Shown: piece by piece, positions 33,893 through 49,579 of the stretch | Layout of the letters: each line of letters begins with the position of its first letter | How positions within the stretch are numbered: position 1 is the stretch's first letter | DNA from: an uncultured SAR116 cluster alpha proteobacterium | Lineage (GTDB): Bacteria; Pseudomonadota; Alphaproteobacteria; Puniceispirillales; Puniceispirillaceae | Direction: 5' to 3' | DNA length: 64,000 nucleotides | Assembly: GCA_902583715.1 (NCBI GenBank) | Contig: CACHXC010000005.1 | Span: 23,996-87,995, forward strand | Made by a program: the position numbers and the translations under genes | The notes under the pieces: generated by a model | The model's database searches: none | Seen by the model: the letters and a program-made list of their open reading frames with translations, nothing else | Told to the model about the DNA's origin: nothing

Positions 33893-33913
33893 TGCAATAT
33901 GCTAGCTTAGCAA
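33893..33913. promoter_or_regulatory. Dyad in the TauE2-LysR2 divergent promoter
   Basis: TGCTA-GCT-TAGCA (33900-33912) is a perfect 5-bp dyad in the 148-base divergent gap, flanked by TTGC and GCAA half-sites. Position and symmetry suit the operator of the LysR gene starting at 34006. Confidence 0.35.
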
Positions 33914-34005
33914 TCCTAGAGCTTTGACTATGGTCGAAACTGACAAAGTGTGCAAACACCTTGTGATATAACGACTGTCTGCCAGTTGCCCAAAGGTATG
34001 AAATT

Positions 34006-35020: not shown

Positions 35021-36109
35021 TTACTCAGCGGCCATCACATTGTCACCGCCCAAGCCAAGAGGATTGGCCGGAGAAACTCCCAGGAAATTACCCCATGCTT
35101 CGTAGTAATGTCGCATGCCAACTTCATCATGAATTGTCGAATTCTCGTGGCGACCATGTAAAATGTTACGAGTTTCGGTGCCCTCTCTCATGGTGGTGCC
35201 CTGACCGGCAACACCAATCAAATCTTCATGTAGGTTACGACCAAATGGCCCCCAAATCGAATTGTGATGCTTAATCCTGGTCGCGCGGTCTTCTTTGGAG
35301 TCGCTTTTCAAACCATAGCCTCTAAATTCAATCATGACCTTGTTTGGGCCAAGAGGTGTTACAGAGTCACTTCTGTAAGCACTACCACGGAGGTTAAAAT
35401 TAAACCCAGGAAACAAATCAACCATGTACCACTGGTTCGGTGGCAGATTAGGGAAAGATAGCTCCCCTCTATCGTCAAACCCGTCATACTCTTCGTAATT
35501 TACCGTGAAACTGCTTACGTTAACATGACCGTTATCAAATGGGATGTTTTTCCGCGCGAAATATTCGTCGTTAAAACCAGACACACGGTTAAAATAATGC
35601 ATGAAATCATGGTAGAATTCACTGTTAGTGTCATGCCAAAGCTTGTAGTTAGTATCAATGACAGCTTTGTGGTAATGGAAAACATCTAACTCTTCTTCGT
35701 CAATCGCATCGGCGATACAGTCAAATGCGCCGCAAGTCCACTCTTCCACACTTTGTGAAGGGTTAGGATCGAGAGTTATCCAAACCATGCCACCATGTTT
35801 GACTTCACTGTGCAGCTTTTTCAGACCATCGGTGTCAATACCGTTTCCTGCAGGCCGGTCGCTTGATGGGCACAAAAACGCTTCAACAGTGTCACCACGG
35901 TTAACAGCAACAACATTTTGATGGGCTATTTGGGAAGATCTGAAATCGCCTTTGTTCGACATTTCGCTTGTATGACAAACAGGAACCCATACTTTTGAAA
36001 AGATTTGCTCAATCTCTTGCTGATAAATGCTATGGTTGTTGTAGCATTCGCTAGATATGAATTCCACCTTGGGCTTCTTCAACCAATTTTTGTGATTTCT
36101 AGGCGCCAT
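35021..36109 (-). CDS. Rieske-less oxygenase alpha subunit keeping the mononuclear iron site
   Basis: Ring-hydroxylase alpha homolog, 362 residues, aligning well with the protein at 47193-48185 (shared WVPVCH-SE, VKHGGMVW/VKYGGFVW, HYHK, TRIK). The Rieske domain is broken: where the paralog has NVCPHRG this has FLCPSSDR (C80), and about 55 residues holding the second Cys/His pair are gone. The catalytic domain is complete: E164, H167 and H171 in SEFYHDFMH plus a likely third ligand D296 in LHEDLIG. It cannot receive electrons through its own cluster, so a partner must supply them. GGGAG six bases before the ATG fixes the start. It stands alone, divergent from a Pta-like gene. Confidence 0.85.
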   Translation of the reverse strand: MAPRNHKNWLKKPKVEFISSECYNNHSIYQQEIEQIFSKVWVPVCHTSEMSNKGDFRSSQIAHQNVVAVNRGDTVEAFLCPSSDRPAGNGIDTDGLKKLHSEVKHGGMVWITLDPNPSQSVEEWTCGAFDCIADAIDEEELDVFHYHKAVIDTNYKLWHDTNSEFYHDFMHYFNRVSGFNDEYFARKNIPFDNGHVNVSSFTVNYEEYDGFDDRGELSFPNLPPNQWYMVDLFPGFNFNLRGSAYRSDSVTPLGPNKVMIEFRGYGLKSDSKEDRATRIKHHNSIWGPFGRNLHEDLIGVAGQGTTMREGTETRNILHGRHENSTIHDEVGMRHYYEAWGNFLGVSPANPLGLGGDNVMAAE

Positions 36110-36305
36110 TTTCTACTCCCGAACATAAACAGTGCGCGACAGATCTCGCAATATACATACCAAATATCGGCGATCTTGGCTTTCATGTCAATCTACGCGT
36201 TAAGGATTTGCTAAAATCGGCTAATAGTCTGAACCAATAAAGAGATAACTCTCACTCATCATTTTCTTGCAGTTGGTTCCCATCAGTACTTCATGTAGGA
36301 TGACA

Positions 36306-36315
36306 GACACGTGTC
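36306..36315. promoter_or_regulatory. 10-bp palindrome between oxygenase subunit and pta-like gene
   Basis: GACACGTGTC is a perfect palindrome in the 285-base divergent gap, surrounded by several GACA units (TGACA, AGACA, GTGACA). It lies 80 bases before the pta-like start and is a candidate operator. Nothing else is evident in the gap. Confidence 0.35.
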
Positions 36316-36394
36316 AAAAGACAAAACGTTAAGTGACAAAACTTGCCGCATTGTCCAATAGCGGTAAAAATCCCAAGCGACGTGGAATTTTCTT

Positions 36395-37336
36395 ATGGTA
36401 CGAAACGGAATGAATGATCCAAACAACGGCTTTTTATATAGTGGACATGCCAGCGATCAGGAGGCCCTGATCAAAAAAGCGTCGAAAGACAATCCAAAAG
36501 AATTTATTTTCGTCCGCGCAACCAGTTCAACGGTTCTAGAGACCGCCCGAAAAGCCCATAAGTTAAAGCTCGTCAAACCAATTTTAGTTGGCGAACGGAA
36601 AGCAATTGAAAAAGCATCAAATTCAATTGGTTGGTCCCTCAAAAATATCGACGTTGTCGCTACAAATGATGAAGAAGATGCCATCTCCTCTTCTGTAAAT
36701 CTCTTTAAATCTGGTAATATTTCGGGTTTCGTAAAGGGTAACCTACACACAGATACATTCATGGGCGGCCTTGTCAAAAGAGAGGCTGGAGTTCGGGCTG
36801 GCCGACGACTTGTTCATGTCTTTGTCATGCTGCCTCCTAACGGGGGCGAGCCACTTTTAATAAGTGACGCTGCGATAAATATAAGACCCGACATTAACAC
36901 CCGCGTTGAGGCAGCACTCTTAATGGCTGAAATGTCACGAAAACTGGGTTGCACACGACCAAAAGTAGCGGTTCTATCAGCTACTGAGAGCATTCTGCCT
37001 GCTATGCCGTCAAGCGTCGAAGCAGTTGAAATTGCCAGATTGGCTCGAGAGAAAGATCCTGATGCAGATTTTTTTGGGCCCCTTTCTTTTGATCTTGCAA
37101 TTTCACCTAGAGCCACTGCCGAAAAGGGTATAACTAACCAAGTAGCTGGCAGGGCCAACGCACTTGTTGTACCCGACATTGTATCAGGTAATATTCTGTT
37201 CAAGTCTCTTGTTTGGTGTGCAGGCGGATTGGCAGCTGGTTTGGTTTTAGGTGGCGCCGTGCCAATAGTATTGACCAGTCGCTCTGATCCACCAGAAGCA
37301 AGACTTGCAGCTATAGCACTCGCATCTCTAGCGTGA
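36395..37336 (+). CDS. Phosphate acetyl/butyryltransferase-family enzyme (Pta/Ptb-like)
   Basis: A 313-residue acyl-phosphotransferase of the Pta/Ptb family, expected to interconvert an acyl phosphate and acyl-CoA. Family blocks include the LVKPILVGERKAIEKA start, GNLHTDTFMGGLV, ISDAAINIRPDI and the end block NALVVPDIVSGNI. In taurine and isethionate users Pta turns the acetyl phosphate made by Xsc into acetyl-CoA, but no Xsc gene is in the window. GGA eight bases before the ATG supports the start. It is convergent with the GcvT-like gene. The exact acyl group is open. Confidence 0.8.
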   Translation: MVRNGMNDPNNGFLYSGHASDQEALIKKASKDNPKEFIFVRATSSTVLETARKAHKLKLVKPILVGERKAIEKASNSIGWSLKNIDVVATNDEEDAISSSVNLFKSGNISGFVKGNLHTDTFMGGLVKREAGVRAGRRLVHVFVMLPPNGGEPLLISDAAINIRPDINTRVEAALLMAEMSRKLGCTRPKVAVLSATESILPAMPSSVEAVEIARLAREKDPDADFFGPLSFDLAISPRATAEKGITNQVAGRANALVVPDIVSGNILFKSLVWCAGGLAAGLVLGGAVPIVLTSRSDPPEARLAAIALASLA

Positions 37337-37376
37337 AATTTTAGTATCAAGTGCAATAAATATGTTTAGCAAAATA

Positions 37377-38513
37377 TTAAATCGCAGTAATTTTTTGGAA
37401 ATTACTGTAGAAACGGCGTGAACAAACAATAGCTTTCCGGCTTTTGACTGAATAACAGCTGTCCCCAAAAACGCAAATTTGGTTACCATTGACGGCTAAC
37501 TCAGGTTTGATCTGAGCAATTGCGATCGTTTTACCGAGCCATGCACTTACTGCGTGGCTAGTTATTTTACCAACAGTCTGCCCGTTCGCATACAAGAAGC
37601 TGTGTTCGTACAACGGGCTAAGCCCATCAATGGTCAAGCCAACAATCTTGTGCCTTGGCATTCGGGATTTTTTCTCCCACGCAGTTTTTCCACGAAAATG
37701 TTTTTTCGAACCATCAATTATAAAGTCGAGCCCAAGTTCAGTTGGAGTCTCAGAGCCTGTCATATCACGTCCAAAAAATAACAAGCCTGCCTCAATCCGG
37801 GCGATATCGATTGCATCGAATCCAACAGGCACGGCTCCATTCGAAACCAGATAGTTCCATACATGGATTGCGTGCTGAGATTTTACGAAAATTTCAAAAC
37901 CATCCTCACCTGAATAACTGGTACGCGCAATCATTACATCTGAGTCTGAAATGGAAAACAGCCCATGTTCGAAACGTCCAAGATTTACAGGCAGTGGCCC
38001 CCTAACGATCCTTTTAATCACAGTCGCCGCATGTGGCCCTTGCAACATCAGGCATACTGTATCATCGTCAGCCCGCGCAATAACTTCGGTACCCTCCAGT
38101 GACTTCGAGAGGTAGTCCACACCAAAGCCAGCACCAAAACAAATCAACCAAGACGCATCAAATTTTTCAGACTCTAGCGATGACAGACGAAAGACTATTG
38201 CATCGTCAATCACGTATCCGTTCTCATTCAGCAAAGCTGCATAAGTGGCCACACCTGGTTTGATCTTATTGCAATCGCGTGTAATCAAAAAATCTATAAC
38301 TTCAGAAGCACCTGAACCCTTGAGCCATATCTTTTTTATACCCGACATATCTGTGAGGCCAGCAGCCTTGCGGATCGCTTTGTGCTCAGACTCAACTCCC
38401 TTGCTATAACTTTTTGAGACTGGCATCTGGTTCCAGACGAAAAAGTCAGCGCCAAGAGCCTCATGAACTGAAACTATCGGGCTGGATCTGGAATTTGCAA
38501 AGCTTACCCGCAT
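37377..38513 (-). CDS. GcvT-family tetrahydrofolate-dependent C1 transferase
   Basis: Aminomethyltransferase-fold protein of 378 residues, related to GcvT, DmdA and sarcosine/dimethylglycine demethylase domains. The conserved folate-active Asp block is NENGYVIDDAIV (D103-D104); further fold marks are SYSGEDGFEIFV and FDAIDIARIEAGL. It has no GcvH, GcvP or other glycine-cleavage partner nearby, so it probably demethylates or moves a C1 unit from another compound to THF, in keeping with fhs and folD. Its ATG overlaps the stop of the GldFG-like gene as TGATG, so the two are coupled. The substrate is unknown; DmdA-like action on a methylated sulfur compound is one option. Confidence 0.75.
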   Translation of the reverse strand: MRVSFANSRSSPIVSVHEALGADFFVWNQMPVSKSYSKGVESEHKAIRKAAGLTDMSGIKKIWLKGSGASEVIDFLITRDCNKIKPGVATYAALLNENGYVIDDAIVFRLSSLESEKFDASWLICFGAGFGVDYLSKSLEGTEVIARADDDTVCLMLQGPHAATVIKRIVRGPLPVNLGRFEHGLFSISDSDVMIARTSYSGEDGFEIFVKSQHAIHVWNYLVSNGAVPVGFDAIDIARIEAGLLFFGRDMTGSETPTELGLDFIIDGSKKHFRGKTAWEKKSRMPRHKIVGLTIDGLSPLYEHSFLYANGQTVGKITSHAVSAWLGKTIAIAQIKPELAVNGNQICVFGDSCYSVKSRKAIVCSRRFYSNFQKITAI

Positions 38514-41071
38514 CAAAATTTTCTGATCCTTTGAGATCTCCGTCTAAAATCTCGCAGTATCAATAAAATAACAGCAGAAAAAATTGGACCACAAATAAGG
38601 TTTAGCAATATTGTTACTTGGAACAGCTCATTGACATCCTGCCTAATTTGAAGCCGAATTTTCCGAAGCTCTTCTTTCAGCGGATATATCATCTCTCGAA
38701 TTTTAAGAACTTCCAGTTTGAGAGACTCCGGTAAATCGTTTTCAGTCTTCGCATTTGCTAGTTTTAGAAACTGCCTGATATTTTCCTCAGCCGCGTTTAT
38801 GCTTGAGGCAAACTCAACCTCTTTCGAGTGATATTTTTCTCGGCTAGCAACTAACATTTCTTCAACTTTTGAAAAAACTCTGACCGGGCTTTTTCTAGAC
38901 CTAATCTCCAATAAGTCTTCCGAGCCAGCTGAGAGCTCCACCAAGTTCAAAAACAAATTGTGATTATCGTTAATAGGTCTGGACAGAGCTGCAGCCGTGG
39001 ATCCAACACCCGCTCTGCTGAAACCATCATAAAGCCAATCAGTATCTCCAACCAACACCAAAGATGCTGACGTTTTTAGATCGTTTGCATTGTTGCGCAG
39101 GAATGGGGATGACAATTTTTCGTTGACCCGACCGACAATAATTTTTGGAGCCTGCACATCGCTTTCAAAGGCCAATGAGAGTTCTCCCGTGCTCTTCTCA
39201 TTAAACGAGGCGCGCGTTTCTATGGAAATTTGTTCACTGGTGACAACAATTGGCTTTAAAAAATTAGACCCTTCCTCTGAGGTAAAGCCTCCTGCCTCTG
39301 CAAACAATAACTCATTAAGATTGGCAACAACTGGCTCATCTTTTGTCATGTTTTTTTCGCGCAGTCTTAGCCAATATGGATACGCGAAATTTTTGCCGTT
39401 TCCTGTCTCCACATTTGCGGCATTTTCAAAATCACCAACAACACCATCACGAGAAAATTCTATTCCATAAAATTGTATCAGATCCGCAATTGTGTTGATT
39501 TTCCCTATCCCCGATAGCCCCAATTCCAATTTAGCGTTGGCTTCGTTCATACGCTGAAAAGGATCGAGCATTATTATTGCACTTCTACCCTCTTGAATGT
39601 GTTGATCGATTGCCTTGACCATCGCCTGCCGGATGATTGGCGCATCAAAAATTATCAGGACATCATATTGTTCATCTAAACTCTCAGCAAAATATGGAAG
39701 GACAGACACGTCGTATTGACGTTTTAGGTCCTCTATTACGGATAAACCAGGGTGTGTCGTGTGTGCATTAGAGGGCTTAAGCACTGAGGACAACAGAGCT
39801 ATCCTTGGTGGCTGTGCGCGTTGTAAATTGCTCAGCTGGAGTGCGAGGTCATATTCCAGCGAGGCTGCCCGATTCACATCTATGTAACCAGTTGTTAAAG
39901 AGCGATCCTCTTTACTGATAACCATACCAAAGTAGAATTCGTCACCTGAAGACATCGGTATACGAGCGATGCCAGCACTTTCCGCCTCATCAGCTTCGCG
40001 ACTATCAATCCGCAGTGTTATAACAGAAACCTCAATTTTTCCAAAACTTGCTGCTTCGAGGGCATTTAGTGAACGCTCAACTCGATCCATATGTTTAATT
40101 ATTTTTTGAGGAATTTGGCTTTTGTCAGAGCTCACAAACAACCTAATTTTTGTGCCGTCGGAGCTTTTTTCTGCGAGTTCCAGTGTCCTTGAGTTGAACG
40201 TATATTCCTTTGCATCCGTCAAATCTAATTTCAAATCAAGGTAACTGACAAAGTTAGCCATCATGCCAATTGAACCAGCGGAAATAAATAAACAGGTAAT
40301 TGAAATAAATGGGAAATATGTCAATAAAAAAGATGTTTTTCGGTATCCTCCTATCTGATAGCTCGCAAGCCAAATACAAACGGACGTTAGGGTGAGAAAA
40401 TAAAAAATCCCGGATAGGCTCACCTTGCCTGCAGTAAACTCATCAAACCAATGAGCTGGGCTGGCAACAAAGGTAAAGCGACTTATTTGCTCAACAAAAT
40501 TTGGCAGCGCAGCAATCTGAAGTGCGTCAACATCCAGAAAAATGAGTGCGAATAATGCACAAGAGCCCAATAAAAATGAACTGACCTCCTCTTTGGAGAC
40601 AGCACTGGCCAAAATCGCGACAGCGTACATCAAAGCGAGCGCAAGAATTGCACCGACATATCCAGAGATCACAGTTCCCCAATCAGGCTCACCCAAAACA
40701 CCAAGGGTCACAACCAATGGGAACGTGAGGAGCAGCATTTGGCTCAAAATTATCAGGCCACAAAGCCATTTCCCTACCACAATTTCAATTGGCAAAAAGG
40801 GGTAGGAGAGCAACAAGCTCATCTCACTTGAAGCTTTTTTGGTGCCAAAGGCTCTCATTCCAAAAGCTGGAAGAAAAAAAACTGATAACCAAAGCAGGAA
40901 TGTCCACTGAAGTGACAAGCTCACCAGATTTGAGTCTAGAAAATTTCCAATAAAAAAAATACAGATCGTCAAAAGAATTAAAAAACCGGATATGAACAGA
41001 GCAGTAGAGGTAGAACAGCCGCGGAGGATAAGTTCATAAACGAGTATTGTTTTGATGTTTCTCAGGCTCAA
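38513..41071 (-). CDS. Fused ABC-2 permease and GldG-like protein
   Basis: An 852-residue fusion. The first 265 residues are an ABC-2-type permease (GldF-like, about six helices). The middle 550 are a soluble GldG/ABC_transp_aux-type domain that should lie outside the cytoplasm, and a single helix near 825-845 ends the protein with a basic tail. The GldG part contains PRIALLSSVLKPSN and GRSAIIMLDPF typical segments. The ATPase partner lies 35 bases upstream. In Bacteroidetes GldAFG serves gliding; elsewhere the role of such exporters is mostly unknown. Its place within an apparent sulfonate-importer operon is unusual. Confidence 0.78.
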   Translation of the reverse strand: MSLRNIKTILVYELILRGCSTSTALFISGFLILLTICIFFIGNFLDSNLVSLSLQWTFLLWLSVFFLPAFGMRAFGTKKASSEMSLLLSYPFLPIEIVVGKWLCGLIILSQMLLLTFPLVVTLGVLGEPDWGTVISGYVGAILALALMYAVAILASAVSKEEVSSFLLGSCALFALIFLDVDALQIAALPNFVEQISRFTFVASPAHWFDEFTAGKVSLSGIFYFLTLTSVCIWLASYQIGGYRKTSFLLTYFPFISITCLFISAGSIGMMANFVSYLDLKLDLTDAKEYTFNSRTLELAEKSSDGTKIRLFVSSDKSQIPQKIIKHMDRVERSLNALEAASFGKIEVSVITLRIDSREADEAESAGIARIPMSSGDEFYFGMVISKEDRSLTTGYIDVNRAASLEYDLALQLSNLQRAQPPRIALLSSVLKPSNAHTTHPGLSVIEDLKRQYDVSVLPYFAESLDEQYDVLIIFDAPIIRQAMVKAIDQHIQEGRSAIIMLDPFQRMNEANAKLELGLSGIGKINTIADLIQFYGIEFSRDGVVGDFENAANVETGNGKNFAYPYWLRLREKNMTKDEPVVANLNELLFAEAGGFTSEEGSNFLKPIVVTSEQISIETRASFNEKSTGELSLAFESDVQAPKIIVGRVNEKLSSPFLRNNANDLKTSASLVLVGDTDWLYDGFSRAGVGSTAAALSRPINDNHNLFLNLVELSAGSEDLLEIRSRKSPVRVFSKVEEMLVASREKYHSKEVEFASSINAAEENIRQFLKLANAKTENDLPESLKLEVLKIREMIYPLKEELRKIRLQIRQDVNELFQVTILLNLICGPIFSAVILLILRDFRRRSQRIRKF

Positions 41072-41106
41072 TTATACCACCACTTCTATTTCTGGTTCTG
41101 GGCACA

Positions 41107-41817
41107 CTAACTCGCGTAATTTATTATCGAGCTTTCCAAGTGCCCCTCGGCGTCCAGGAATGCTTGGGTGGCCCCATCCTTCACGATACACCCGTTATTC
41201 ATAACCAATATGCGCCCGCACATAGCTTCTGCCTCCTCCAAGATATGGGTCGACATTATCACAATTTTTTTTCTCGCGATTTCCAGGATATAACGCCGTA
41301 ACGCAACCTTTTGAATAGGATCCAATCCATCCGTCGGCTCGTCAAGGAAGAGAATTTCGGGGTTGTGCACCAAAGCTTGAGCAAGCCAAACTCTTTGCCG
41401 TAGACCCTTTGAGAGATCAGCCAGACGTAAGCCTGATATTTGCTCTAATTGCAGTTCCTCTATAACTGTCGTGACAGATTTTTTCTGTTTATCATTACTC
41501 AAACCGTGCGAAAGCGCTGAGAGTCTTATAAACTCAGCGGCTGTCAAATCTTCAAATCCAGACGGCGACTCAGGCAAGTAGCCAACTTTAAGCTGACAAT
41601 AAGTTCTGCTGCGAACAATTGAATGCTGGTTGAAAAATGCATCGCCATCGCTGGGTGTTAAAACACCAGACAGGCATTTAATCAATGTTGACTTACCAGC
41701 TCCATTTGCACCCAACAGCCCAATAAAATCACCATCACATGCAGAGAAATTAACGCCATCAAGGGCTGGCTTGTCTCCATAAAATTTTGTCAAGCTTCGC
41801 ACTTCTATCGTATTCAT
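41107..41817 (-). CDS. ABC exporter ATPase (GldA-like)
   Basis: Cytoplasmic ATPase of 236 residues for the GldFG-like permease that follows. Motifs are Walker A LLGANGAGKST, the signature LSKGLRQRVWLAQAL, Walker B EILFLDEPTDGLDP and the H-loop IMSTHILEEAEAM, the pattern of ABC-2/export ATPases, unlike the importer ATPases upstream. The permease gene starts 35 bases after it. It follows the small membrane protein gene by 25 bases, so it may belong to the same long minus-strand transcript as the sulfonate importer. Confidence 0.88.
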   Translation of the reverse strand: MNTIEVRSLTKFYGDKPALDGVNFSACDGDFIGLLGANGAGKSTLIKCLSGVLTPSDGDAFFNQHSIVRSRTYCQLKVGYLPESPSGFEDLTAAEFIRLSALSHGLSNDKQKKSVTTVIEELQLEQISGLRLADLSKGLRQRVWLAQALVHNPEILFLDEPTDGLDPIQKVALRRYILEIARKKIVIMSTHILEEAEAMCGRILVMNNGCIVKDGATQAFLDAEGHLESSIINYAS

Positions 41818-41842
41818 TGATTACGCCAGCCATGTATCAGAT

Positions 41843-42094
41843 TCAGGACAGGTCAATAATAAACCCAGAAACAATGAACAAGAAAATACTAACAGACATG
41901 GCCGCATAGCCACTCGTTGAAAAACCTTTTGCGATCCGATTGACTGCTACGTCACGGCTTTCAAACGGCCGGTCACCGATCATAGACACCACAAAACTGC
42001 TCAGAGCTCTGGCAAACGTTGATAGAATTGCACCCATGATAGCAAGTGAAACAACTATATTTTTTGAGGTCATAATTAGTAGAAAGTCGAGCAC
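41843..42094 (-). CDS. Small two-helix membrane protein of unknown role
   Basis: An 83-residue protein with two hydrophobic segments (MTSKNIVVSLAIMGAILSTFA and GYAAMSVSIFLFIVSGFIIDL). It lies between the importer ATPase gene (54 bases) and the GldA-like gene (25 bases), on the same strand. The start is a GTG with GGACC upstream; an ATG seven codons in is also possible. I do not recognise the family. It may be an accessory piece of the GldAFG-like exporter. Confidence 0.55.
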   Translation of the reverse strand: MLDFLLIMTSKNIVVSLAIMGAILSTFARALSSFVVSMIGDRPFESRDVAVNRIAKGFSTSGYAAMSVSIFLFIVSGFIIDLS

Positions 42095-42148
42095 TTTCAG
42101 AGGTCCTATTAAAAATAGATGGACTGGAGCCTCAGTGATAGCCCAAAG

Positions 42149-42994
42149 CTATTTTGAAATAGCGAAGCTTTTCATTGCTTCACCGTGAAGCAAATCCATA
42201 GCCTGTTTTCGATATTTAAAGGCTTTGGCAGACGTCAACATCTTGTAGTTGCGAGGACGCGGCAAATCAATTTTGATGACAGTTTGGACGGTGGTTGGCT
42301 TGTTTGACAAAATGACCAAATTGTCGGCGAGAAAGATAGCTTCATCTATCTCAGACGTGACAAAAATGTTCGTTTTTTTATTCTCCTCGAAAAGTTCAAG
42401 GAAGAATTCCTGCATGAGGCTCCGCGACATAGCATCAAGCCCTCTGAAAGGCTCATCCATGATCATAACAGTTGGCTCATTAATCAAAGCACGCGCCAAT
42501 TCAGCGCGGCGCTGCATACCGCCAGAAAGTTGGAGCGGAAATTTGTGAATAAATTCACCAAGTCCAACTTTGACCAAAAGTTCCTTGGCCTCGTCATCAA
42601 GCGAACGTCCCTTTTTTTCGCCTCTCATTTTCGGACCAAACGTTACATTTTCTAATGTGGTTTGCCATGGGATCAACGCCGTTTCTTGGAAAACAACCAT
42701 CCTGTCCTGAGCTGGCCCTGTGACGAGTTTTCCATCTACAGTTACCTCCCCCACATCGGGCTTTTCAAATCCGGCAAGGAGGTTAACTAATGTCGATTTG
42801 CCGCATCCAGATGGCCCAACGATAACGGTCAGCTCACCGGCTGGAAATTCAACGGAAATGTTTTTTAAAACCTCCTCGGATTCCCAGGTTTCACCGTAGG
42901 CTTTGGACACATTTTTCATTTCCACTTGCGAGCTATTTAACTTTTTATTTTTTTTACTCGCAGTTGATTTAGAAGCTGACTTGCTTGAGCTCAT
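42149..42994 (-). CDS. Sulfonate/taurine-type ABC importer ATPase 2
   Basis: Importer ATPase of the NitT/TauT class, 281 residues. It has a Ser/Lys-rich N-terminal extension (about 25 residues), then Walker A VGPSGCGKST, a variant signature LSGGMQRRAELARAL, Walker B TVMIMDEPFRGLD and the D/H-loop region, where VTSEIDEA stands in the place of the usual VTHD, so the switch His is replaced by Ser. That His loss in an importer ATPase suggests a less active or regulatory half-site. GGAG six bases before 42994 sets the start over the GTG at 43006. It pairs with the permease at 43049. Confidence 0.85.
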   Translation of the reverse strand: MSSSKSASKSTASKKNKKLNSSQVEMKNVSKAYGETWESEEVLKNISVEFPAGELTVIVGPSGCGKSTLVNLLAGFEKPDVGEVTVDGKLVTGPAQDRMVVFQETALIPWQTTLENVTFGPKMRGEKKGRSLDDEAKELLVKVGLGEFIHKFPLQLSGGMQRRAELARALINEPTVMIMDEPFRGLDAMSRSLMQEFFLELFEENKKTNIFVTSEIDEAIFLADNLVILSNKPTTVQTVIKIDLPRPRNYKMLTSAKAFKYRKQAMDLLHGEAMKSFAISK

Positions 42995-43048
42995 CTCAAA
43001 CTCCACACCATTTCAAATAATTTTCCATAATTCGGTCTAAAAATGCGA

Positions 43049-43858
43049 TCAAAAAAGCCGCCGCCAAGGCATAAAGAAATATCCAATTTTTCGGATGGTA
43101 CTCGAACAGATATACCCAGCTATGCCAATTGATATCATTCCAACAACAATTTGCTCTAAAGAACCGCCCATGTATGAATTCCAGATGAAAAAGCCGAGGC
43201 CACCGCCACCTTGTGTGCCACCGCCAGAAATCATCTCAGCAGCAAGGACAACCTCCCAAGTGATACCCATACCAACTGCAGCACCAGTAAATATCGACGG
43301 CAACGTGCCTGGCAGCACTATTTTCCAAAATAAGTCCATTTGAGACGCGCCCATTGATTGGGCGGCTCTCAGGTAACTGATATCAATACTTCGCGCACCA
43401 CCAAGGACATTAATCACTATTGTAAAAAACGCCCCAAGAAAGGTTACAAAAGCGATCGACATTTCATTTGTTGGCCAAAAAATCAGGGAGGCCGGAACCC
43501 AAGCTAATGGTGGAATAGGCCGGAGTATTTCAAATGGCGGAAAAAAAACCCCGCGAAAATATCTATTAACGGCTAGCAACAAGCCAAATGGGATTCCAAT
43601 TATCATTGCTACCAAAAAACCAGCCAAAACCCGGCTAAAACTTGATACCCAGCTCATCCAGTACCCAACCTTTGGAATAACACCAAGAAATGCAGCAAAA
43701 ACATCTCCAGGTGGGGGCACTAAACCTATGCCTAAAACATCTACACCAGTCCAATCATCAATCATTGCACCAATGTGCCAAATGATTACAAAGCACACGA
43801 TCGCCCCAACACCCCGCCGGGTGGTCGTGTTTTTGAGAAAATTTCCTACAGCACTCAT
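43049..43858 (-). CDS. Sulfonate/taurine-type ABC importer permease 2
   Basis: Permease of the TauC/SsuC class, about 270 residues with six helices. The EAA coupling loop reads SYLRAAQSMGASQMDLFWKIVLP. The frame is open to a GTG at 43927 that would overlap the upstream ATPase gene by 20 bases. The ATG at 43858 has GAG six bases upstream and begins just before the first helix, so it is preferred, but the longer form is possible. An ILRPIPPLAWVPASLIF block is typical of the family. Two different permeases share the one binding protein of this locus. Confidence 0.83.
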   Translation of the reverse strand: MSAVGNFLKNTTTRRGVGAIVCFVIIWHIGAMIDDWTGVDVLGIGLVPPPGDVFAAFLGVIPKVGYWMSWVSSFSRVLAGFLVAMIIGIPFGLLLAVNRYFRGVFFPPFEILRPIPPLAWVPASLIFWPTNEMSIAFVTFLGAFFTIVINVLGGARSIDISYLRAAQSMGASQMDLFWKIVLPGTLPSIFTGAAVGMGITWEVVLAAEMISGGGTQGGGGLGFFIWNSYMGGSLEQIVVGMISIGIAGYICSSTIRKIGYFFMPWRRLF

Positions 43859-43907
43859 GTTTGTCTCAATTCCTGGCTCGTTTAAATATGAACTTTGCAA
43901 ATCATTA

Positions 43908-44756
43908 TCAGGCCATTTCTCGCTCACCCGCTTGGAAGGCCTTTACAGCTTCTTCGTGAACAGCATCGTTGACCTCCTCAAGAAGTTTGCGAAAACCTTC
44001 AGAGGATTGGGTGGCATAAGACCTAGGCCTCGGGATTTTTACCTCAACTGTCTTTTTCAACTGACATGGACGGGTCGTAACAACATGCACTTTGTCCCCG
44101 AGAAAAATGGCCTCCTCCAGGTCGTGCGTAATAAAAAAGATCGTCACGCCAGTTCTGTCGTATGTTTCAAGCAAAGACTCATGCATGATCTGTTTTGTTA
44201 AGGCATCCATGGCTCGATACGGCTCATCCAACAGCAAGACTTTTGGGTTATTTATTAGGGCTCTGACAATCTCTGCGCGCCGCGCCATCCCAGATGAAAC
44301 CTCACCAGGATATTTTTTAACAAATTGTCCAAGACCCGCCTCAGCCAGCATTTGGCCTGCTTTGTCCATTGCCTCATTTTTAGACAACACCCGCTGAACA
44401 GTTGGCCCGTAAGCAACATTTTCTTGAAGTGTTTTCCATGGGAACAACGCTCCATGTTGAAAAACCACCATTCGCTCTGCACTTTGCTCAGCTTTTGGCT
44501 TTGTTGGGCCGCATAAAAGCTCCCCATCCAGATGAATGCTTCCCTCAGTAATGGAGTGAAAGCCTGCAATCGCGTTTAAAAGTGTCGTTTTACCGCACCC
44601 TGATGGTCCAACAATCATGCAAACCTCACCACCTGCGATTTCCATAGAACAATCGTCCACAGCTTTGACATTCACGCCCGATGGATCATAAATTTTTGTG
44701 ACATTTTTGATGCTTAAAGCACCAATTTTTTTCCGTTTAGGAGATTTGTTCACCAT
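43908..44756 (-). CDS. Sulfonate/taurine-type ABC importer ATPase 1
   Basis: Importer ATPase of 282 residues. Motifs are Walker A VGPSGCGKTT, signature-like VSSGMARRAEIVRAL (the usual LSGGQ is SSGMA here), Walker B VLLLDEPYRAMD and a standard H-loop FITHDLEEA. So this copy keeps the switch His that the other ATPase has lost, while its signature motif is the more diverged one. AGGA seven bases before 44756 fixes the start; the frame runs on to 44831. It lies 38 bases after the first permease. The two ATPases are probably a heterodimer. Confidence 0.86.
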   Translation of the reverse strand: MVNKSPKRKKIGALSIKNVTKIYDPSGVNVKAVDDCSMEIAGGEVCMIVGPSGCGKTTLLNAIAGFHSITEGSIHLDGELLCGPTKPKAEQSAERMVVFQHGALFPWKTLQENVAYGPTVQRVLSKNEAMDKAGQMLAEAGLGQFVKKYPGEVSSGMARRAEIVRALINNPKVLLLDEPYRAMDALTKQIMHESLLETYDRTGVTIFFITHDLEEAIFLGDKVHVVTTRPCQLKKTVEVKIPRPRSYATQSSEGFRKLLEEVNDAVHEEAVKAFQAGEREMA

Positions 44757-44794
44757 AACTATTTCCTTTATGCCCTTCTCAAAGAGCAGATCAT

Positions 44795-45676
44795 TTATCG
44801 ACCTTGCTGTGCCAGCTCTTTCACATGCCAAGCCATCAATTTGTTGCCCAACGCCCTAACACATGCAGAGCTGAAATAACCGATAAATCCCAGAGTTATC
44901 ATAGCAATGACCATTGGCACCGTCACATTGTTCATGTACGCGTCAACAATCAGATAGCCTAACCCCAAATCACCAGAGACCATTTCTGCTGCAACTAGAG
45001 AGAACCATGCCACACCAATCGAAATCTGGAGACCGGTAAAAATAAAAGGTAATGCTCCTGGCACAACAACATGCCGGAAAATATCCCACCTTGATGAACC
45101 AAGGCATCCAGCCGCTCGGAAATATTCTTCATCAATTGAGTCAACGCCAAGCATGGCATTCAACGTAGTAACGAAGAATGAGGCTAAAGTTGCAAGGAAA
45201 ATCACTGGCCCCTCAAACCCTGGAAGCAACAGGATGGAAAGCGGCACCCAGGCCAAAATTGGAATTGGACGCAGAGTTTCGATGATTGGAAAAATATAGT
45301 CACGTATTGACCTGGACCAGCCCATAAATAGACCCAGAGGCACGCCAAGCCCGGTCGCTAAACCGAACGCAAACAAAATTCGTTGGCAGCTTACTGCAAT
45401 ATGGTCATAGTATTCTTGGGTAAAAATTGAGATCCCTTGAAACGGAGTGGTGGAAAACCAATCCTTAGAGATCGCCACTGGACCCGGCAATTTATTGAAC
45501 CGCCAGATCTCAAGCCCTTCGCACAAAACCCAGTATGCAAAAAGCCAGAGGCCAATGCCAGCAACGGTCAAATATGGATCTACACTTTTAAATTTTTTGT
45601 TCATGCGGAGCATGAATAATTCGAATCCCTCGGGCTTAGCATTGCCATCAAGCTGTGTAGTTGAAGACTGGGTCAT
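44795..45676 (-). CDS. Sulfonate/taurine-type ABC importer permease 1
   Basis: Permease of the TauC/SsuC class, 293 residues, six helices, coupling loop EEYFRAAGCLGSSRWDIFRHVVVP and the block ETLRPIPILAWVPLSILLLP. GGAG seven bases before the ATG supports the start. It is the second gene after the binding protein, separated by an attenuator-like hairpin. Sequence identity to the second permease is visible through the whole length but modest, so they form a true pair of different subunits rather than a recent duplicate. Confidence 0.87.
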   Translation of the reverse strand: MTQSSTTQLDGNAKPEGFELFMLRMNKKFKSVDPYLTVAGIGLWLFAYWVLCEGLEIWRFNKLPGPVAISKDWFSTTPFQGISIFTQEYYDHIAVSCQRILFAFGLATGLGVPLGLFMGWSRSIRDYIFPIIETLRPIPILAWVPLSILLLPGFEGPVIFLATLASFFVTTLNAMLGVDSIDEEYFRAAGCLGSSRWDIFRHVVVPGALPFIFTGLQISIGVAWFSLVAAEMVSGDLGLGYLIVDAYMNNVTVPMVIAMITLGFIGYFSSACVRALGNKLMAWHVKELAQQGR

Positions 45677-45725
45677 CTGTAGGCTCCAGAAGCGATTTTC
45701 AATTCATTAAAAAAATGGAAAAACC

Positions 45726-45752
45726 GGGAGGGACCATTACACAGTCCCGCCC
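45726..45752 (-). terminator. Attenuator-like hairpin after the binding-protein gene
   Basis: GGGAGGGAC (45726-45734) and GTCCCGCCC (45744-45752) form a nine-base stem with one mismatch and a nine-base loop. On the minus strand it is followed by GGTTTTT. It lies between the binding-protein stop and the permease start, where partial termination would keep the binding protein in excess. Confidence 0.6.
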
Positions 45753-45770
45753 TAAATTTATTGAGTTGAA

Positions 45771-46877
45771 TTACTTTGCAACGATACGACCGACTGGCGT
45801 CTTCAGTCCGCGCTTCTCAAGAACACGCTCAGCAAACTGAGGCATGACACCCTCAGGCCGAATTTGTGGCGCCGCGGCAGGCTTCTTCTTCAGGCTGTAT
45901 AGAAAAGCCGTAGCGTCCCGCAGCAACGACTGCGCATCGTCACTGATGACAAAATCAAGCTGTAGCTTTGTTGTTCCCGACATTGGCGAGTCGTACAAGC
46001 TAGCCTTCAGTACAGATTTGTCAATTTGCTCAGTCTGCTGTTCTGCCATTGACGCAACCGCGTCGGCATTTGCAGGGTTTGCCACAAATTCTTGCGCATC
46101 TAATTCTGCTTCTAGCCAACCCATAACAACATCTGGGCGTTGAGCAATCAAATCATTGAGCATCACCATGAATGCACCGTCCTGAGCGCCAAAGTCTTCG
46201 CCAGAGGCTGCCCGACGAGCTATACCCGATTTAACCATTTTAGATGCAGTTGGCTCCCAAATGGCAGCGGCATCAAGCTTACCTGCGCGAAAGTTCGTTG
46301 TGATGACCTCAATGTTCTGATTCAAATATTTTGCTGGCTTGATACCTGCTTTTTTGAAAGCGAGTTGAGCAAATCGGTCAGTACATGCTCCATGAGGTGC
46401 TGATGTGACTTTACCGTCCATCCACTTTACAGCTTCTACACCGTTCTTGAATTGAGGAGCGTCATTGCGAACAAGGAAAATATTGCATTGCTGCTTCGAT
46501 GTTCCCAGTGCTGCAACGATTCTGATGTCTGTGCCGCCACGCTCAGGAAGATATTTGAACGTTGAGGCAATTGCTGGCATATCGCCCATGTAACCAATAT
46601 GCTGTTTTTCACCTGCCATCGCATTTACGATAACAGAACCCTGCAGACCAACTTGAAACTCCGCAGTCGATCCCGCAGGCAAATGCTTCTTCCAGAAGGC
46701 TTTGCCGTTGTTAACAACACCAGTCCAAGATTCCGTGTAGTAGGGTTGATAACCGATAACTAGATCGACTTTTTCGCCTCTCTTGCCGAAGTCAACCGCT
46801 GCGTTAGCCGCGGTGGCCCCTGCTAAAACTGCTGCGGCAGCTGTGAGCTTAACAGCCGTTTTTAATGTTTTCTTCAT
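45771..46877 (-). CDS. Periplasmic sulfonate-binding protein (TauA/SsuA-like)
   Basis: Extracytoplasmic binding protein of the NitT/TauT class, 368 residues, with a clear Sec signal (MKKTLKTAVKLTAAAAVLAG, cleavage near ANA-AVD, residue 27). The mature chain starts with KVDLVIGYQPYYTESWTG and has the family pattern for binding small sulfonates or nitrate-like anions (VGLQGSVIVNAMAGEKQHIGY). It leads the minus-strand importer run and is divergent from the Rieske oxygenase genes, an arrangement like the msm and tau loci. Methanesulfonate is the favoured ligand by context; taurine or another sulfonate is possible. Confidence 0.87.
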   Translation of the reverse strand: MKKTLKTAVKLTAAAAVLAGATAANAAVDFGKRGEKVDLVIGYQPYYTESWTGVVNNGKAFWKKHLPAGSTAEFQVGLQGSVIVNAMAGEKQHIGYMGDMPAIASTFKYLPERGGTDIRIVAALGTSKQQCNIFLVRNDAPQFKNGVEAVKWMDGKVTSAPHGACTDRFAQLAFKKAGIKPAKYLNQNIEVITTNFRAGKLDAAAIWEPTASKMVKSGIARRAASGEDFGAQDGAFMVMLNDLIAQRPDVVMGWLEAELDAQEFVANPANADAVASMAEQQTEQIDKSVLKASLYDSPMSGTTKLQLDFVISDDAQSLLRDATAFLYSLKKKPAAAPQIRPEGVMPQFAERVLEKRGLKTPVGRIVAK

Positions 46878-47192
46878 CGTGTTCCTCCCGATTAAGTTGT
46901 TTCAAACAGTTTGGAGAGAAAAGCGATTGCATGCAAGTCCCGCGTGATTTTGCGTACTTTTTGGACAATTGCACGGGTTGACTTCCTCCTCCTTGATAGA
47001 ACGATAGGCTCTACCATTCACCCAGGCTTCTTCTGGCCGGTTTAAAATCCTAAATATTATTAGAGCCAACTATCAAGCCATTTGCTTATTCATATGACCG
47101 ATCAAGTGATAGCAAAATGTAATTGCGACAAATATTGTCAACTGACCGTATCGATATGAAAATACATCGCCAAAATTTATAGAGGTTTAAAA
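46878..47192. promoter_or_regulatory. Divergent promoter region, importer versus oxygenase
   Basis: A 315-base gap without a supported gene, between the binding-protein start and the Rieske subunit start. It is A+T-rich and holds a GACAA-ATA-TTGTC dyad at 47127-47139, 54 bases before the plus-strand ATG, as an operator candidate. Further features could not be assigned. AGAGG precedes the plus-strand start. Confidence 0.5.
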
Positions 47193-48185
47193 ATGGACAT
47201 TGAGACAAGACCCAGCGCCACCGAGACTGCTCAATGCATTGCAGGCATGTCAGAAAAAGTAGCAGCTAACCCCTTGGATAGTGACTTCATCGCAGAGCAG
47301 ACCCGTATTTTCCGCAATGCATGGGTGCCTGTTTGCCACGAGTCTGAACTGCCAGCACCTTATGATTTTAGGACAGCTAGTATTGGCAATGAAAACATAA
47401 TCATTTGCAGAGCCCCAGATGGGAAAGTTAACGCGCTTTTGAATGTCTGCCCCCACCGTGGCATGTTGATCGAGAGGAGACCGCAGGGCAGTTTTCTCGA
47501 GGGTCAGGCATCTGGTAATCCTAAAAGAATTACCTGCATGTTTCACGCTTGGCAATTTGATATGCGAGGTAATTGTGTATACGTCGCCCGAGAGAAAGAA
47601 GGATATCAAGAGAGATTTTCAAAAGATGACGCAGGGCTCCGTCGAATCCGTTGTTCGGTAAAATATGGTGGTTTCGTATGGGTCAATATGAATGACCAGC
47701 CAGTCTCAATGCTCGAAGAGTGGGCTGGGCCAGCGTTTGGCCATGTCGAGCAGCAGCTGAATTCTGTGCCTCTCGAGGTCGTGCACTACCACAAAGAGTA
47801 CGTTGAGCATGGTTATATGACGGAAGCTCTGGAATTTCTGAGCGCTGCAAAACACGGCTCTGTATTCGACTTTGGACATTGTGCAATCACCGCAAATGAC
47901 GATACGGGGAGTCAAAACGTGTCGGATGAGTTTCCAAAACCAAACTCCGGAGGAACATCCAAAATCCATCTGTTTCCAGGTTATGTTTTCGATATAACCG
48001 GGCCAGTCCTCCATGTGAAAGTGGTAACGCCGGTGGACCCAAACCTCACAATGATCGAACACCGAGGCCTAGTACCGCAAGGAGAAAATAAAACAGATCG
48101 TGACACACGGATAAAATACTACAACCTGAACCATGGCCCCTTTCGCATCTCAGCCATGAACTCTACAGAAGGATCTCAGTCATGA
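47193..48185 (+). CDS. Rieske-domain oxygenase alpha homolog lacking the iron site (MsmA-like)
   Basis: A 330-residue alpha-subunit homolog. The Rieske cluster is complete: C86, H88, C115, H118, a CxH-x26-CxxH pattern with the long 26-residue spacer reported for methanesulfonate monooxygenase MsmA. Past HYHK (197-201) the chain departs: the helix that should carry the mononuclear iron ligands reads GYMTEALEFLSAAKHG, with no D/E-x2-H-x3/4-H. The protein also ends shortly after YNLNHGPF, before the third ligand and the C-terminal helix. So it can only be an electron-carrying subunit. AGAGG precedes the ATG, and the stop overlaps the reductase start as ATGA. Confidence 0.87.
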   Translation: MDIETRPSATETAQCIAGMSEKVAANPLDSDFIAEQTRIFRNAWVPVCHESELPAPYDFRTASIGNENIIICRAPDGKVNALLNVCPHRGMLIERRPQGSFLEGQASGNPKRITCMFHAWQFDMRGNCVYVAREKEGYQERFSKDDAGLRRIRCSVKYGGFVWVNMNDQPVSMLEEWAGPAFGHVEQQLNSVPLEVVHYHKEYVEHGYMTEALEFLSAAKHGSVFDFGHCAITANDDTGSQNVSDEFPKPNSGGTSKIHLFPGYVFDITGPVLHVKVVTPVDPNLTMIEHRGLVPQGENKTDRDTRIKYYNLNHGPFRISAMNSTEGSQS

Positions 48186-49579
48186 ACCCAGAAAAAAACG
48201 CTGAGAAAAATACTTTCGTTGCCCATTACTTAAATGAGTGGTCAATGTGGATGGATACCCACCCGGAGGGGCTTAAACGCACAACCGAGAAAAATAACGC
48301 CGACGAAAATAGCGCTGATGATGCCGGCGAATCACCCAACGGGCCGCAAGTCGTTGTCATTGGAGCCAGTCACGCTGGAGTATCATTTGCTGATCGTCTT
48401 CGTAAAAATGGTTTTTTAGGCAGCATATCCATATTCGACAAACAAGTTGGTGGGCCAATGGAGCGCCCACCTTTGTCAAAGGGGTTTCTTCTCGGTGGCG
48501 GTGAGTCAGTTGAGTCAAAGTCGCTGCTAAGGCAAAAAAAATGGTACAAAACAAATAAGATCAAGCTAAAGACGCAAAGCACGGTTCATAGTATCGACAA
48601 AGACAATCAGACAATCACAGTCAACAACGGCGATGTTGTAAAATTCGATAAGCTGGTTATCGCGAGCGGCGCTGTTCCAAAAGAATTGCCGAGCTCAAAA
48701 GATATGGGCAACGCCTTTGTCTTGCGTCAGCCAGCTGATGCAAACGCAATCCGTCAAACCGCAAATAATTCCGACTCGGTGGTAATTATTGGAGGTGGAT
48801 ATATTGGCCTCGAGGTCGCATCGTCACTGCGCAAAAAAGGTATGAAAATAACCGTGATTGAGGCTGGCGAGAGAATCCTTGCCAGAGTGGCAAGTCAACC
48901 GCTTGCCGACCTTCTCCATAAGTTACACGAGGATAACGGTGTCACTGTTATCACAGGAGTTGGCGTTGAGAGTGTAAACCAAGAAGATGGGATTTTTCAC
49001 AGTGTAACCTTATCTGACGGTAGAGTTATAGAAGGAGAGATGCTGATAACAGGTATCGGCGTTTTTCCAGACAGCAAGCTTGCCTCGGATTCGGGATTAG
49101 AGACTCAGTTCGATAATGGCGGTGCTATCTTAGTGAGCAATGAAATGCAAACTAGCGATGAAAATATATATGCGATAGGGGATGTCGCACTTCGTCGCGA
49201 ACAGAGTATTGCAGTTGAATCAGTCCACAACGCGCAAGAGTCAGCAGCCATAGCCGCAGCCGCGATCGCCGGCGTGGACAGCCCAAACATTCAAACTCCC
49301 TGGTTCTGGTCCGATCAATATGATGCAAAACTTCAGTCCGTTGGAATCGTGCCGGTTCTTGACGACAACGTTTACCAGGTCGAAAGACCCGGAAAGCGAG
49401 ACGGCGCTGTGTCATTCTGGAGCTATCGTGGGAACGAACTGGTGGCCGTCGAGGTGGTCAATGACCCGGCAACGTACATGGAAGCCAGACAATGTCTCGA
49501 CACAAAACGATTTCCTGATCCGAAACAAATAAGTAATCCATCTTATTCACCTATCGATAGTGGCGGAGGTCGGTCGTGA
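48182..49579 (+). CDS. BphA4-type ferredoxin reductase with an alpha-tail-like N-terminus
   Basis: FAD/NADH ferredoxin reductase of 465 residues. The FAD fold is VVVIGASHAGVSFADRL near residue 57, the NAD fold VVIIGGGYIGLEVASSL near 200, the FAD tail block YAIGDVA near 330 and the C-terminal TPWFWSDQYD block is typical of BphA4/rubredoxin-reductase types. An extra N-terminal 50 residues includes AHYLNEWSMWMDTHPEG, which resembles the end of the oxygenase subunit at 35021 (RHYYEAWGNFLGVSPAN; same H-Y-x3-W spacing). AAGGA eight bases before the ATG confirms that this extension is translated. It replaces the FNR-type MsmD of classical msm operons. Confidence 0.9.
   Translation: MNPEKNAEKNTFVAHYLNEWSMWMDTHPEGLKRTTEKNNADENSADDAGESPNGPQVVVIGASHAGVSFADRLRKNGFLGSISIFDKQVGGPMERPPLSKGFLLGGGESVESKSLLRQKKWYKTNKIKLKTQSTVHSIDKDNQTITVNNGDVVKFDKLVIASGAVPKELPSSKDMGNAFVLRQPADANAIRQTANNSDSVVIIGGGYIGLEVASSLRKKGMKITVIEAGERILARVASQPLADLLHKLHEDNGVTVITGVGVESVNQEDGIFHSVTLSDGRVIEGEMLITGIGVFPDSKLASDSGLETQFDNGGAILVSNEMQTSDENIYAIGDVALRREQSIAVESVHNAQESAAIAAAAIAGVDSPNIQTPWFWSDQYDAKLQSVGIVPVLDDNVYQVERPGKRDGAVSFWSYRGNELVAVEVVNDPATYMEARQCLDTKRFPDPKQISNPSYSPIDSGGGRS

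What the first reader, a model, noticed from the sequence alone, without database searches (positions are those of the whole stretch)
35021..48185. Two reciprocally degenerate oxygenase alpha subunits: one Rieske-only, one iron-site-only
The subunit at 47193-48185 has C86/H88 and C115/H118 but no mononuclear iron ligands and no C-terminal tail. The homologous subunit at 35021-36109 lacks the Rieske ligands (SSDR after C80, about 55 residues gone) but keeps E164, H167, H171 and a likely D296. They align through flanking blocks, so they descend from one alpha. In known Rieske oxygenases electrons cross from the Rieske centre of one subunit to the iron of its neighbour; complementary loss would force a hetero-oligomer. 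In an odd-numbered ring not all interfaces can then be productive, so the stoichiometry is itself a question. I know of no description of this arrangement but could not search.
Basis: partly seen in the sequence, partly recalled or inferred. Interest (0 to 1): 0.95.

Follow-up and report, generated by a model that had tools for sequence, protein, structure and literature searches.

The report
Two-part oxygenase with phage-type iron half
In a group of ocean bacteria an enzyme that is predicted to break down methanesulfonate is divided between two incomplete relatives of one subunit, one keeping only the electron-relay site and the other only the iron site, and the iron half, the only half found in marine phages, was likely taken from a phage.

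Summary
The ORF at 35021-36109 (iron-only alpha, "IOA") lacks the Rieske ligands and keeps E164/H167/H171/D296; the ORF at 47193-48185 ("ROA") keeps C86/H88/C115/H118 with the 26-residue spacer of methanesulfonate monooxygenase (MsmA) and lacks the iron site. In 136 genomes of the order IOA is in 12 and ROA in the same 12 (partial in one). In 14 of 14 other complete ROA genes fetched as loci, ROA is fused to a flavin reductase; the window's strain has split that fusion by a 26-bp insertion. Each half is strongly constrained where it keeps its metal site. (2) Host IOA is nested inside phage IOA, while ROA is sister to a complete SAR116 MsmA. So a phage-derived iron subunit likely took over catalysis and the native alpha became an electron donor tethered to its reductase. 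Electron transfer between the halves, the substrate and the direction of transfer are inferred. Precedent: NdmC/NdmD.

The parts
35021..36109 (-). IOA: iron-site-only MsmA-type alpha subunit (362 aa)
   Evidence: PF00848 only; in 12 of 136 genomes of the order; nested in phage IOA
35597..35620 (-). codons E164 to H171 (EFYHDFMH): likely bridging acid and the two His ligands
   Evidence: invariant in 19 IOA; E164 and H167 aligned with a solved oxygenase, H171 offset
35222..35224 (-). codon D296: likely carboxylate iron ligand (NLHED)
   Evidence: invariant in 19 IOA; aligned with a solved oxygenase
35822..35872 (-). stub (C80 to L96) left where about 50 residues of the Rieske cluster-binding part are missing
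   Evidence: spacing 56 against 106 residues; alignment
47193..48185 (+). ROA: Rieske-only MsmA-type alpha subunit (330 aa), first part of what is one fused gene in relatives
47448..47546 (+). C86-x-H88 / X26 / C115-xx-H118 Rieske ligands with the MsmA-type 26-residue spacer
   Evidence: invariant in 16 ROA; spacer as MsmA hallmark from PMC4433239 passages
47733..48143 (+). degenerate catalytic domain without iron ligands
   Evidence: relaxed selection, dN/dS 0.09-0.24 in the 6 of 8 pairs where dS could be computed
48145..48170 (+). 26-bp insertion relative to the fused genes of G002 (exact placing ambiguous), which splits ROA from tail and reductase
   Evidence: DNA alignment
48182..49579 (+). 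flavin reductase ORF (465 aa; Pyr_redox_2 + Reductase_C), start overlaps the ROA stop (ATGA)
   Evidence: fused to ROA in relatives
48224..48265 (+). alpha C-terminal tail motif HYLNEWSMWMDTHP, now near the N-terminus of the reductase ORF
49646..50155 (+). beta subunit (MsmB-like)
50220..50621 (+). Rieske ferredoxin (MsmC-like)
   Evidence: PF00355
50615..51490 (+). conserved protein of unknown function, part of the operon in relatives
   Evidence: no Pfam family above cut-off; beside IOA or ferredoxin in relatives
42149..46877 (-). sulfonate-type ABC transporter (two ATPases, two permeases, binding protein), msmEFGH-like; names from sequence, not scanned
   Evidence: homologues beside msm genes in split and many complete systems; transport role from PMC4433239 passages
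33108..34956 (.). TauE/SafE-type exporter (33108-33857, -; family name recalled from sequence, not scanned) and LysR regulator (34006-34956, +)
   Evidence: LysR; homologues of both beside many msm operons

Best explanation
The alpha subunit of a methanesulfonate-monooxygenase-type Rieske oxygenase is here divided between two genes, ROA with only the Rieske-cluster ligands and IOA with only the iron-site ligands, and the two are predicted to act as one enzyme in which the Rieske half likely passes electrons to the iron half. In relatives ROA is one polypeptide with a flavin reductase (shown). The likely electron path is NADH, FAD, Rieske ferredoxin (50220-50621), ROA Rieske cluster, IOA iron across a subunit interface held by the beta subunit (inferred from the general Rieske-oxygenase mechanism). 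The likely substrate is methanesulfonate, giving formaldehyde and sulfite (inferred from the MsmA-type spacer, transporter and neighbours). History, inferred from trees: phages captured a complete MsmA and lost its Rieske part, so that the phage subunit would have to borrow a host Rieske centre; an ancestor of these SAR116 bacteria then acquired a phage iron subunit; its own complete MsmA, freed from catalysis, lost the iron site and became fused to a flavin reductase of another type than the usual MsmD. In the window's strain the fusion was later split by a 26-bp insertion.
For: Reciprocal, conserved ligand loss. Co-occurrence in 12 of 136 genomes, ROA partial in one. In 8 loci one operon: fusion, beta, ferredoxin, orf51, IOA (G020 has two further ORFs inserted). 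ROA fused to the reductase in 14 of 14 other complete genes in fetched genome loci (11, 3 more). Selection: dN/dS 0.017-0.032 for IOA (3 of 8 pairs with measurable dS), 0.015-0.029 for the ROA Rieske region (7 of 8), 0.09-0.24 for ROA's dead catalytic part (6 of 8). Intermediates: ROA of G020 and L240 still show traces of the iron motif. Phages carry only the iron half: 0 of 173 distinct viral proteins with a Rieske motif, 156 of 156 complete ones with E..H...H and HED, no homologue of the window's beta, ferredoxin, reductase or transporter genes in the flanks held; Rieske-part scan 21 stretches, 0 relatives. Trees: host IOA one clade nested in phage IOA (p-AU 0.0019 against phage IOA without hosts); ROA sister to the complete SAR116 MsmA of G088 (99/93) and not to host IOA (p-AU 0.0006); all Rieske-less proteins as one clade rejected (p-AU 0.0004). 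No close homologue of G088's MsmD-type reductase in 5 of 5 split genomes searched.
Against: No complex was modelled and no biochemistry exists; contact between ROA and IOA is not shown. Hosts not sampled today could have given IOA to phages several times, which would mimic nesting; many of the viral branches between root and host clade are weak (SH-aLRT 0-75). The AU groups were named after trees had been seen. ROA with the whole IOA clade as one clade is not rejected (p-AU 0.084), so one ancient split before phage spread is not excluded. ROA is a fast, long branch. The AlphaFold model of IOA is weak just at the ligands (mean pLDDT 65 and 52 for residues 161-170 and 171-180), and ROA's Rieske loop 97-109 is under 50. 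A three-membered ring cannot make every interface productive. Substrate is by analogy only.
Confidence: 0.75

Rival explanations
1. The host lineage itself split or duplicated its MsmA into IOA and ROA, and phages later picked up the host's iron half on several occasions; the two halves work together as above, but the phage is the borrower, not the source.
For: Phages usually take metabolic genes from hosts (established knowledge). ROA plus the whole IOA clade as one clade is not rejected (p-AU 0.084). Several viral branches below the host clade are weakly supported.
Against: Host IOA is one clade nested below a series of viral branches; phage IOA as a clade without hosts is rejected (p-AU 0.0019); host IOA with ROA as sisters rejected (p-AU 0.0006); phages lost the Rieske part again beside gammaproteobacterial complete MsmA.
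Confidence: 0.2
2. IOA takes electrons straight from the separate Rieske ferredoxin (50220-50621), which docks where the lost Rieske domain was; the ROA-reductase fusion only reduces the ferredoxin and its own Rieske centre is a by-path.
For: A Rieske ferredoxin gene is kept in the split operons wherever the region is on the contig.
Against: ROA's Rieske core is nearly invariant (dN/dS about 0-0.01 in 7 of 8 pairs) and keeps the MsmA-specific spacer; a ferredoxin gene is also present beside most complete MsmA genes, so it does not specifically replace the lost part.
Confidence: 0.12
3. One or both genes are decayed paralogues, pseudogenes or assembly artefacts without a joint function.
For: The window genome is an incomplete MAG (60%, 51 contigs) and the ROA gene is split in it.
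Against: Same architecture in 12 genomes including a 2.75-Mb single-contig genome; strong purifying selection; the split 331-aa form recurs as protein clusters P0121 and P0122 of 322 and 13 member sequences.
Confidence: 0.03

Closest known systems
Methanesulfonate monooxygenase MsmABCD (with MsmEFGH transporter)
   Same: 26-residue spacer in the Rieske motif of ROA, catalytic core of IOA, beta and ferredoxin genes, divergent transporter, exporter and one-carbon neighbours (PMC4433239 passages)
   Different: MsmA carries both metal sites in one chain and uses a separate 38-kDa reductase; here the sites are on two chains and the reductase is of another type, fused to the Rieske half in relatives
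NdmC/NdmD/NdmE 7-methylxanthine N7-demethylase
   Same: Rieske-less oxygenase subunit; its Rieske domain is fused to the reductase (PMC4408171 passages)
   Different: Here the donor is a whole decayed alpha subunit kept in its scaffold, a beta subunit gene is present, the reductase is Pyr_redox_2/Reductase_C, no GST-like protein was seen among the nine proteins scanned, and the iron half is common in phages
Phage-borne 'msmA' auxiliary metabolic gene (HMO-2011 gp61 and virome msmA)
   Same: Homologous to the window's IOA (73% identity for HMO-2011); Rieske-less, as noted in PMC4433239
   Different: Other passages read treat it as MsmA (PMC4928673; PMC10134843); here it is read as half an enzyme that needs a host Rieske partner

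Membership tests
Methanesulfonate monooxygenase alpha subunit (MsmA) | CxH-X26-CxxH Rieske motif | tested here: met
   ROA: yes, invariant. IOA: no
Methanesulfonate monooxygenase alpha subunit (MsmA) | 2-His-1-carboxylate iron site in the same chain as the Rieske site | tested here: not met
   Neither chain has both
Methanesulfonate monooxygenase alpha subunit (MsmA) | operon with beta and ferredoxin and divergent msmEFGH-type transporter | tested here: met
Methanesulfonate monooxygenase alpha subunit (MsmA) | separate Fer2/FNR-type reductase MsmD | tested here: not met
   G088 has one; 5 of 5 split genomes searched (G000 only 60% complete) gave no close homologue, only short hits, in G020 one within a 321-aa frame at E 4.5e-4
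Methanesulfonate monooxygenase alpha subunit (MsmA) | oxidises methanesulfonate | not testable with these tools
   needs an assay
NdmCDE-type split Rieske oxygenase | Rieske-less oxygenase subunit plus Rieske centre fused to the reductase | tested here: met
   (in relatives; in the window the fusion is split)
NdmCDE-type split Rieske oxygenase | reductase with two [2Fe-2S] clusters, FMN and NADH domains | tested here: not met
   fused protein is Rieske + Pyr_redox_2 + Reductase_C
NdmCDE-type split Rieske oxygenase | GST-like structural subunit NdmE | tested here: inconclusive
   no GST family among the nine neighbouring proteins scanned; rest of the genome not searched
Rieske non-haem iron oxygenase superfamily | electron transfer from Rieske centre to the iron of a neighbouring subunit in a C3 oligomer | not testable with these tools
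   no complex could be modelled; single chains fold as alpha subunits

The most novel reading that the evidence does not exclude
The methanesulfonate monooxygenase of SAR116 bacteria is a phage-host chimaera: its catalytic subunit descends from a phage 'plug-in' that had shed its own Rieske centre, and the bacterium's native subunit has been demoted to a reductase-tethered electron donor. Marine phages of several lineages have repeatedly evolved such iron-only cartridges, so the widespread viral msmA gene is half an enzyme that works only by seating itself beside a host Rieske subunit.
Probability: 0.6. Interest if true: 0.95.

Novelty: new variant of a known kind. Interest (0 to 1): 0.88.

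Why it matters
It offers a natural test of a basic claim about Rieske oxygenases, that electrons must cross between subunits: here the two metal sites cannot meet within one chain. It turns the question of ring stoichiometry into an experiment. It changes how a common viral metabolic gene is read (half an enzyme, dependent on the host), which bears on estimates of viral effects on the marine sulfur cycle. And it would be a case of a phage gene displacing the catalytic part of a bacterial enzyme.

Tried and rejected
Simple duplication of one alpha in the host: rejected as stated by the AU test, with the caveat that groups were named after trees had been seen. Assembly artefact: rejected by 12 genomes and the viral collections. 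'Phage contigs may be host fragments': HMO-2011 is an isolated phage with the gene a few genes from lysozyme and terminase; 156 of 244 loci (242 viral, two of them HMO-2011 itself, plus L241 and L242; some contigs fetched twice) hold at least one other HMO-2011 neighbour homologue. Of 20 long flanking ORFs scanned (four of them from L241/L242) 14 hit a PHROG, among them helicase, ribonucleotide reductase, tape-measure, amidase and endonuclease families and two of unknown function only, and 6 hit nothing; of five more one hit a family of unknown function and four nothing. No PHROG matched IOA, two phage IOAs or orf51. Host fragments should have brought in ROA or beta genes; none was seen. Rieske-bearing MsmA in viruses: looked for with ROA (2 stretches, 0 relatives), a ROA alignment (76 stretches, 64 relatives, none with a Rieske motif, a few cut short at contig ends) and the Rieske part.

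Limits and dropped rows. One search used 15 of 156 viral and 16 of 61 complete MsmA representatives, plus G088, and 8 host IOA; one search used 46 and 27 and 17 host IOA, by a quick method; its 'viral' class includes L241 and L242, which come from MAG contigs. One search left out about half of the complete MsmA. In one search, 25 of 156 viral and 3 of 61 complete proteins were not measurable, and the window's ROA was counted twice (12 distinct). In 'FULL' for some fused genes comes from a chance HED in the reductase, and 'IRON' for L299 from one ambiguous residue in its CxxH (seen); L288 also shows a 143-aa fragment labelled 'IRON'. Of the 17 IOA loci, L228 and L274 are the two G002 copies, whose ROA lies beyond the flank (seen). 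One search used 8 pairs from 9 loci; dS was saturated for 5 of 8 IOA pairs. The list was cut; absence of a complete MsmA rests. The PNAS paper on HMO-2011 is not held, so whether it discusses the missing Rieske site is unknown to me.

Papers: only passages around search terms were read of PMC8547437, PMC4433239, PMC5068391, PMC4408171, PMC12445004, PMC4928673, PMC12262181, PMC10134843. That complementarity and the half-enzyme reading are not in print rests on searches of an open-licence library only.


Full report
Observation. The two ORFs exist as described. IOA (35021-36109, -) matches only the catalytic domain of ring-hydroxylating oxygenases; ROA (47193-48185, +) matches the Rieske domain strongly and the catalytic domain below its cut-off. 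The two align over 317 columns at 27% identity, E 8e-32. Aligned with complete MsmA proteins, ROA keeps the Rieske region nearly letter for letter, including the 26-residue spacer that PMC4433239 (passages) calls typical of MsmA, while IOA keeps the catalytic core nearly letter for letter and has about 50 residues fewer at the Rieske site. C86, H88, C115, H118 are invariant in 16 ROA, E164, H167, H171, D296 in 19 IOA. A profile of IOA and MsmA aligned to a solved oxygenase puts E164, H167 and D296 on Asp, His and Asp; H171 falls on a gap close to the second His. None of six ROA checked column by column has the His or Asp ligands.

The donor half is a reductase fusion. In relatives ROA is the N-terminal part of a 787-857-residue protein whose C-terminal part is a flavin reductase (Pyr_redox_2, Reductase_C; two scanned): 11 genes and 3 more (L233, L238, L240). 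The fused proteins keep the last stretch of alpha (HYxxEWxRWMDxHP-like) between the dead catalytic domain and the reductase. In the window a 26-bp insertion relative to G002 shifts the frame, the ROA ORF stops, and the reductase ORF starts in an ATGA overlap, with the alpha tail near its N-terminus. Protein clusters P0121 and P0122 (331 aa; 322 and 13 members) show the same length elsewhere. The reductase type also differs: the complete system of G088 has a Fer2/FNR reductase next door, of which five split genomes (one 60% complete) show no close homologue, only short hits, one of them in a 321-aa frame of G020.

Co-occurrence and selection. In 136 genomes of the order, IOA (E 1e-20) is found in 12 and, as part of a complete MsmA, in G088; ROA is found in the same 12, in G088, and another Rieske oxygenase (37% identity) in G064. 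In G006 only a 136-residue piece of ROA lies at a contig end. No MsmA-type complete alpha was seen beside the pair in these genomes. In 8 loci the order is fusion, beta, ferredoxin, orf51, IOA, with two further ORFs inserted in G020; G035 is spread over two contigs; the window and both copies in G002 have the transporter block between the two halves. A scan of a second genome set found 17 IOA loci among the best 80 of 157 relatives: all but two belong to such operons, to contigs cut short, or to G002; the two exceptions, L241 and L242, carry no msm genes in the stretch held and group with phage proteins; L241 has a phage-type ribonucleotide reductase. dN/dS is 0.017-0.032 for IOA (3 of 8 pairs measurable), 0.015-0.029 for the Rieske region of ROA (7 of 8), about 0 to 0.01 for its core (7 of 8), and 0.09-0.24 for the dead catalytic region (6 of 8). 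This is what one expects if each chain is used for one half only.

Phages carry only the iron half. HMO-2011, a phage whose record names 'Ca. P. marinum' IMCC1322 as host, encodes an IOA 73% identical to the window's, a few genes from lysozyme and terminase genes. G020, a single contig of 2,753,527 bases, is probably IMCC1322 (size recalled). ROA as query gave none; a ROA alignment gave 64 relatives, none with a Rieske motif; an alignment of the Rieske part alone gave 21 stretches and no relative. Of 173 distinct viral alpha-like proteins none has a Rieske motif; all 156 complete ones have E..H...H and HED; no homologue of the window's beta, ferredoxin, reductase or transporter genes lies in the flanks held. 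Phage identity is supported by HMO-2011 neighbour genes in 156 of 244 loci and PHROG hits; 10 of 25 long flanking ORFs scanned had none.

History. With complete MsmA as outgroup, host IOA is one clade (100/99) inside a clade otherwise of phage and phage-like proteins; with 46 phage representatives the host clade (99) is still nested below many viral branches, several of them weakly supported. Holding the phage proteins together without hosts is rejected (p-AU 0.0019), holding all Rieske-less proteins together is rejected (p-AU 0.0004), and holding the three gammaproteobacterial-type phage rows together is weakly rejected (p-AU 0.037), so the Rieske part was lost at least twice and probably three times; these groups were named after the tree was seen. 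ROA is one clade close to the complete MsmA of G088, identical there to L248, a SAR116 MAG, and is its sister on the shared blocks (99/93). ROA with host IOA as sisters is rejected (p-AU 0.0006); ROA with the whole IOA clade is not (p-AU 0.084). I read this as capture of a phage iron subunit by a SAR116 ancestor followed by decay of the native iron site. The opposite direction, repeated capture from unsampled hosts, stays possible. ROA of G020 and L240 still show remnants of the iron motif, as intermediates would.

How it would work. In Rieske oxygenases of known structure electrons pass from the Rieske cluster of one subunit to the iron of the next in a C3 oligomer (PMC12445004, passages). 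Here no chain holds both sites, so transfer must be between chains if the pair is an enzyme at all. Single-chain models fold as alpha subunits (IOA mean pLDDT 83, ROA 73; best matches include terephthalate dioxygenase, salicylate 5-hydroxylase and carnitine oxygenase), with low confidence at the iron ligands of IOA. Whether ROA sits in the ring or docks on an IOA ring is not known. Substrate: the MsmA core and spacer, the divergent sulfonate-type transporter and the exporter and one-carbon neighbours seen also beside msm operons (PMC4433239 passages) make methanesulfonate likely. For the gammaproteobacterial phage type the nearest bacterial genes are complete MsmA, so there the phage subunit would have to pair with a complete host alpha.

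Known and new. [quoted passage not shown] Rieske-less MsmA in IMCC1322, in viromes and in HMO-2011 was noted in 2015 (PMC4433239 passages) and viral msmA is treated as an MsmA gene in other papers (passages). What I did not find in the searches listed is the complementarity with a reductase-fused Rieske alpha, the exclusiveness of the iron half in phages, its repeated origin, and the phage ancestry of the host subunit.

Noticed in passing
window 50615-51490 (+): Conserved 270-290-residue protein without a Pfam family above cut-off, next to ferredoxin or IOA in the split operons (42-56% identity outside the G002 copies); weakly similar proteins beside some complete msm operons.
   Followed up: partly
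L240 (NZFO01000006.1): A MAG labelled Magnetovibrio carries the split operon with an 857-residue ROA fusion and a large insertion in the dead catalytic domain; transfer between lineages or misbinning.
   Followed up: partly
L081 = G006:C63 6537-6947: A ROA fragment at a contig end directly upstream of the transporter ATPase, where permease and binding protein genes are expected; possibly a chimaeric join.
   Followed up: no
L241, L242: Iron-only MsmA on contigs binned as Rickettsiales and Hellea without msm genes in the stretch held; L241 has a phage-type ribonucleotide reductase, so probably phage contigs in bacterial bins.
   Followed up: partly
window 50220-50621 (+): The Rieske ferredoxin ends in a very acidic tail (EDEDIDESTFFDDDDDDDEW), possibly a docking tail.
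   Followed up: no
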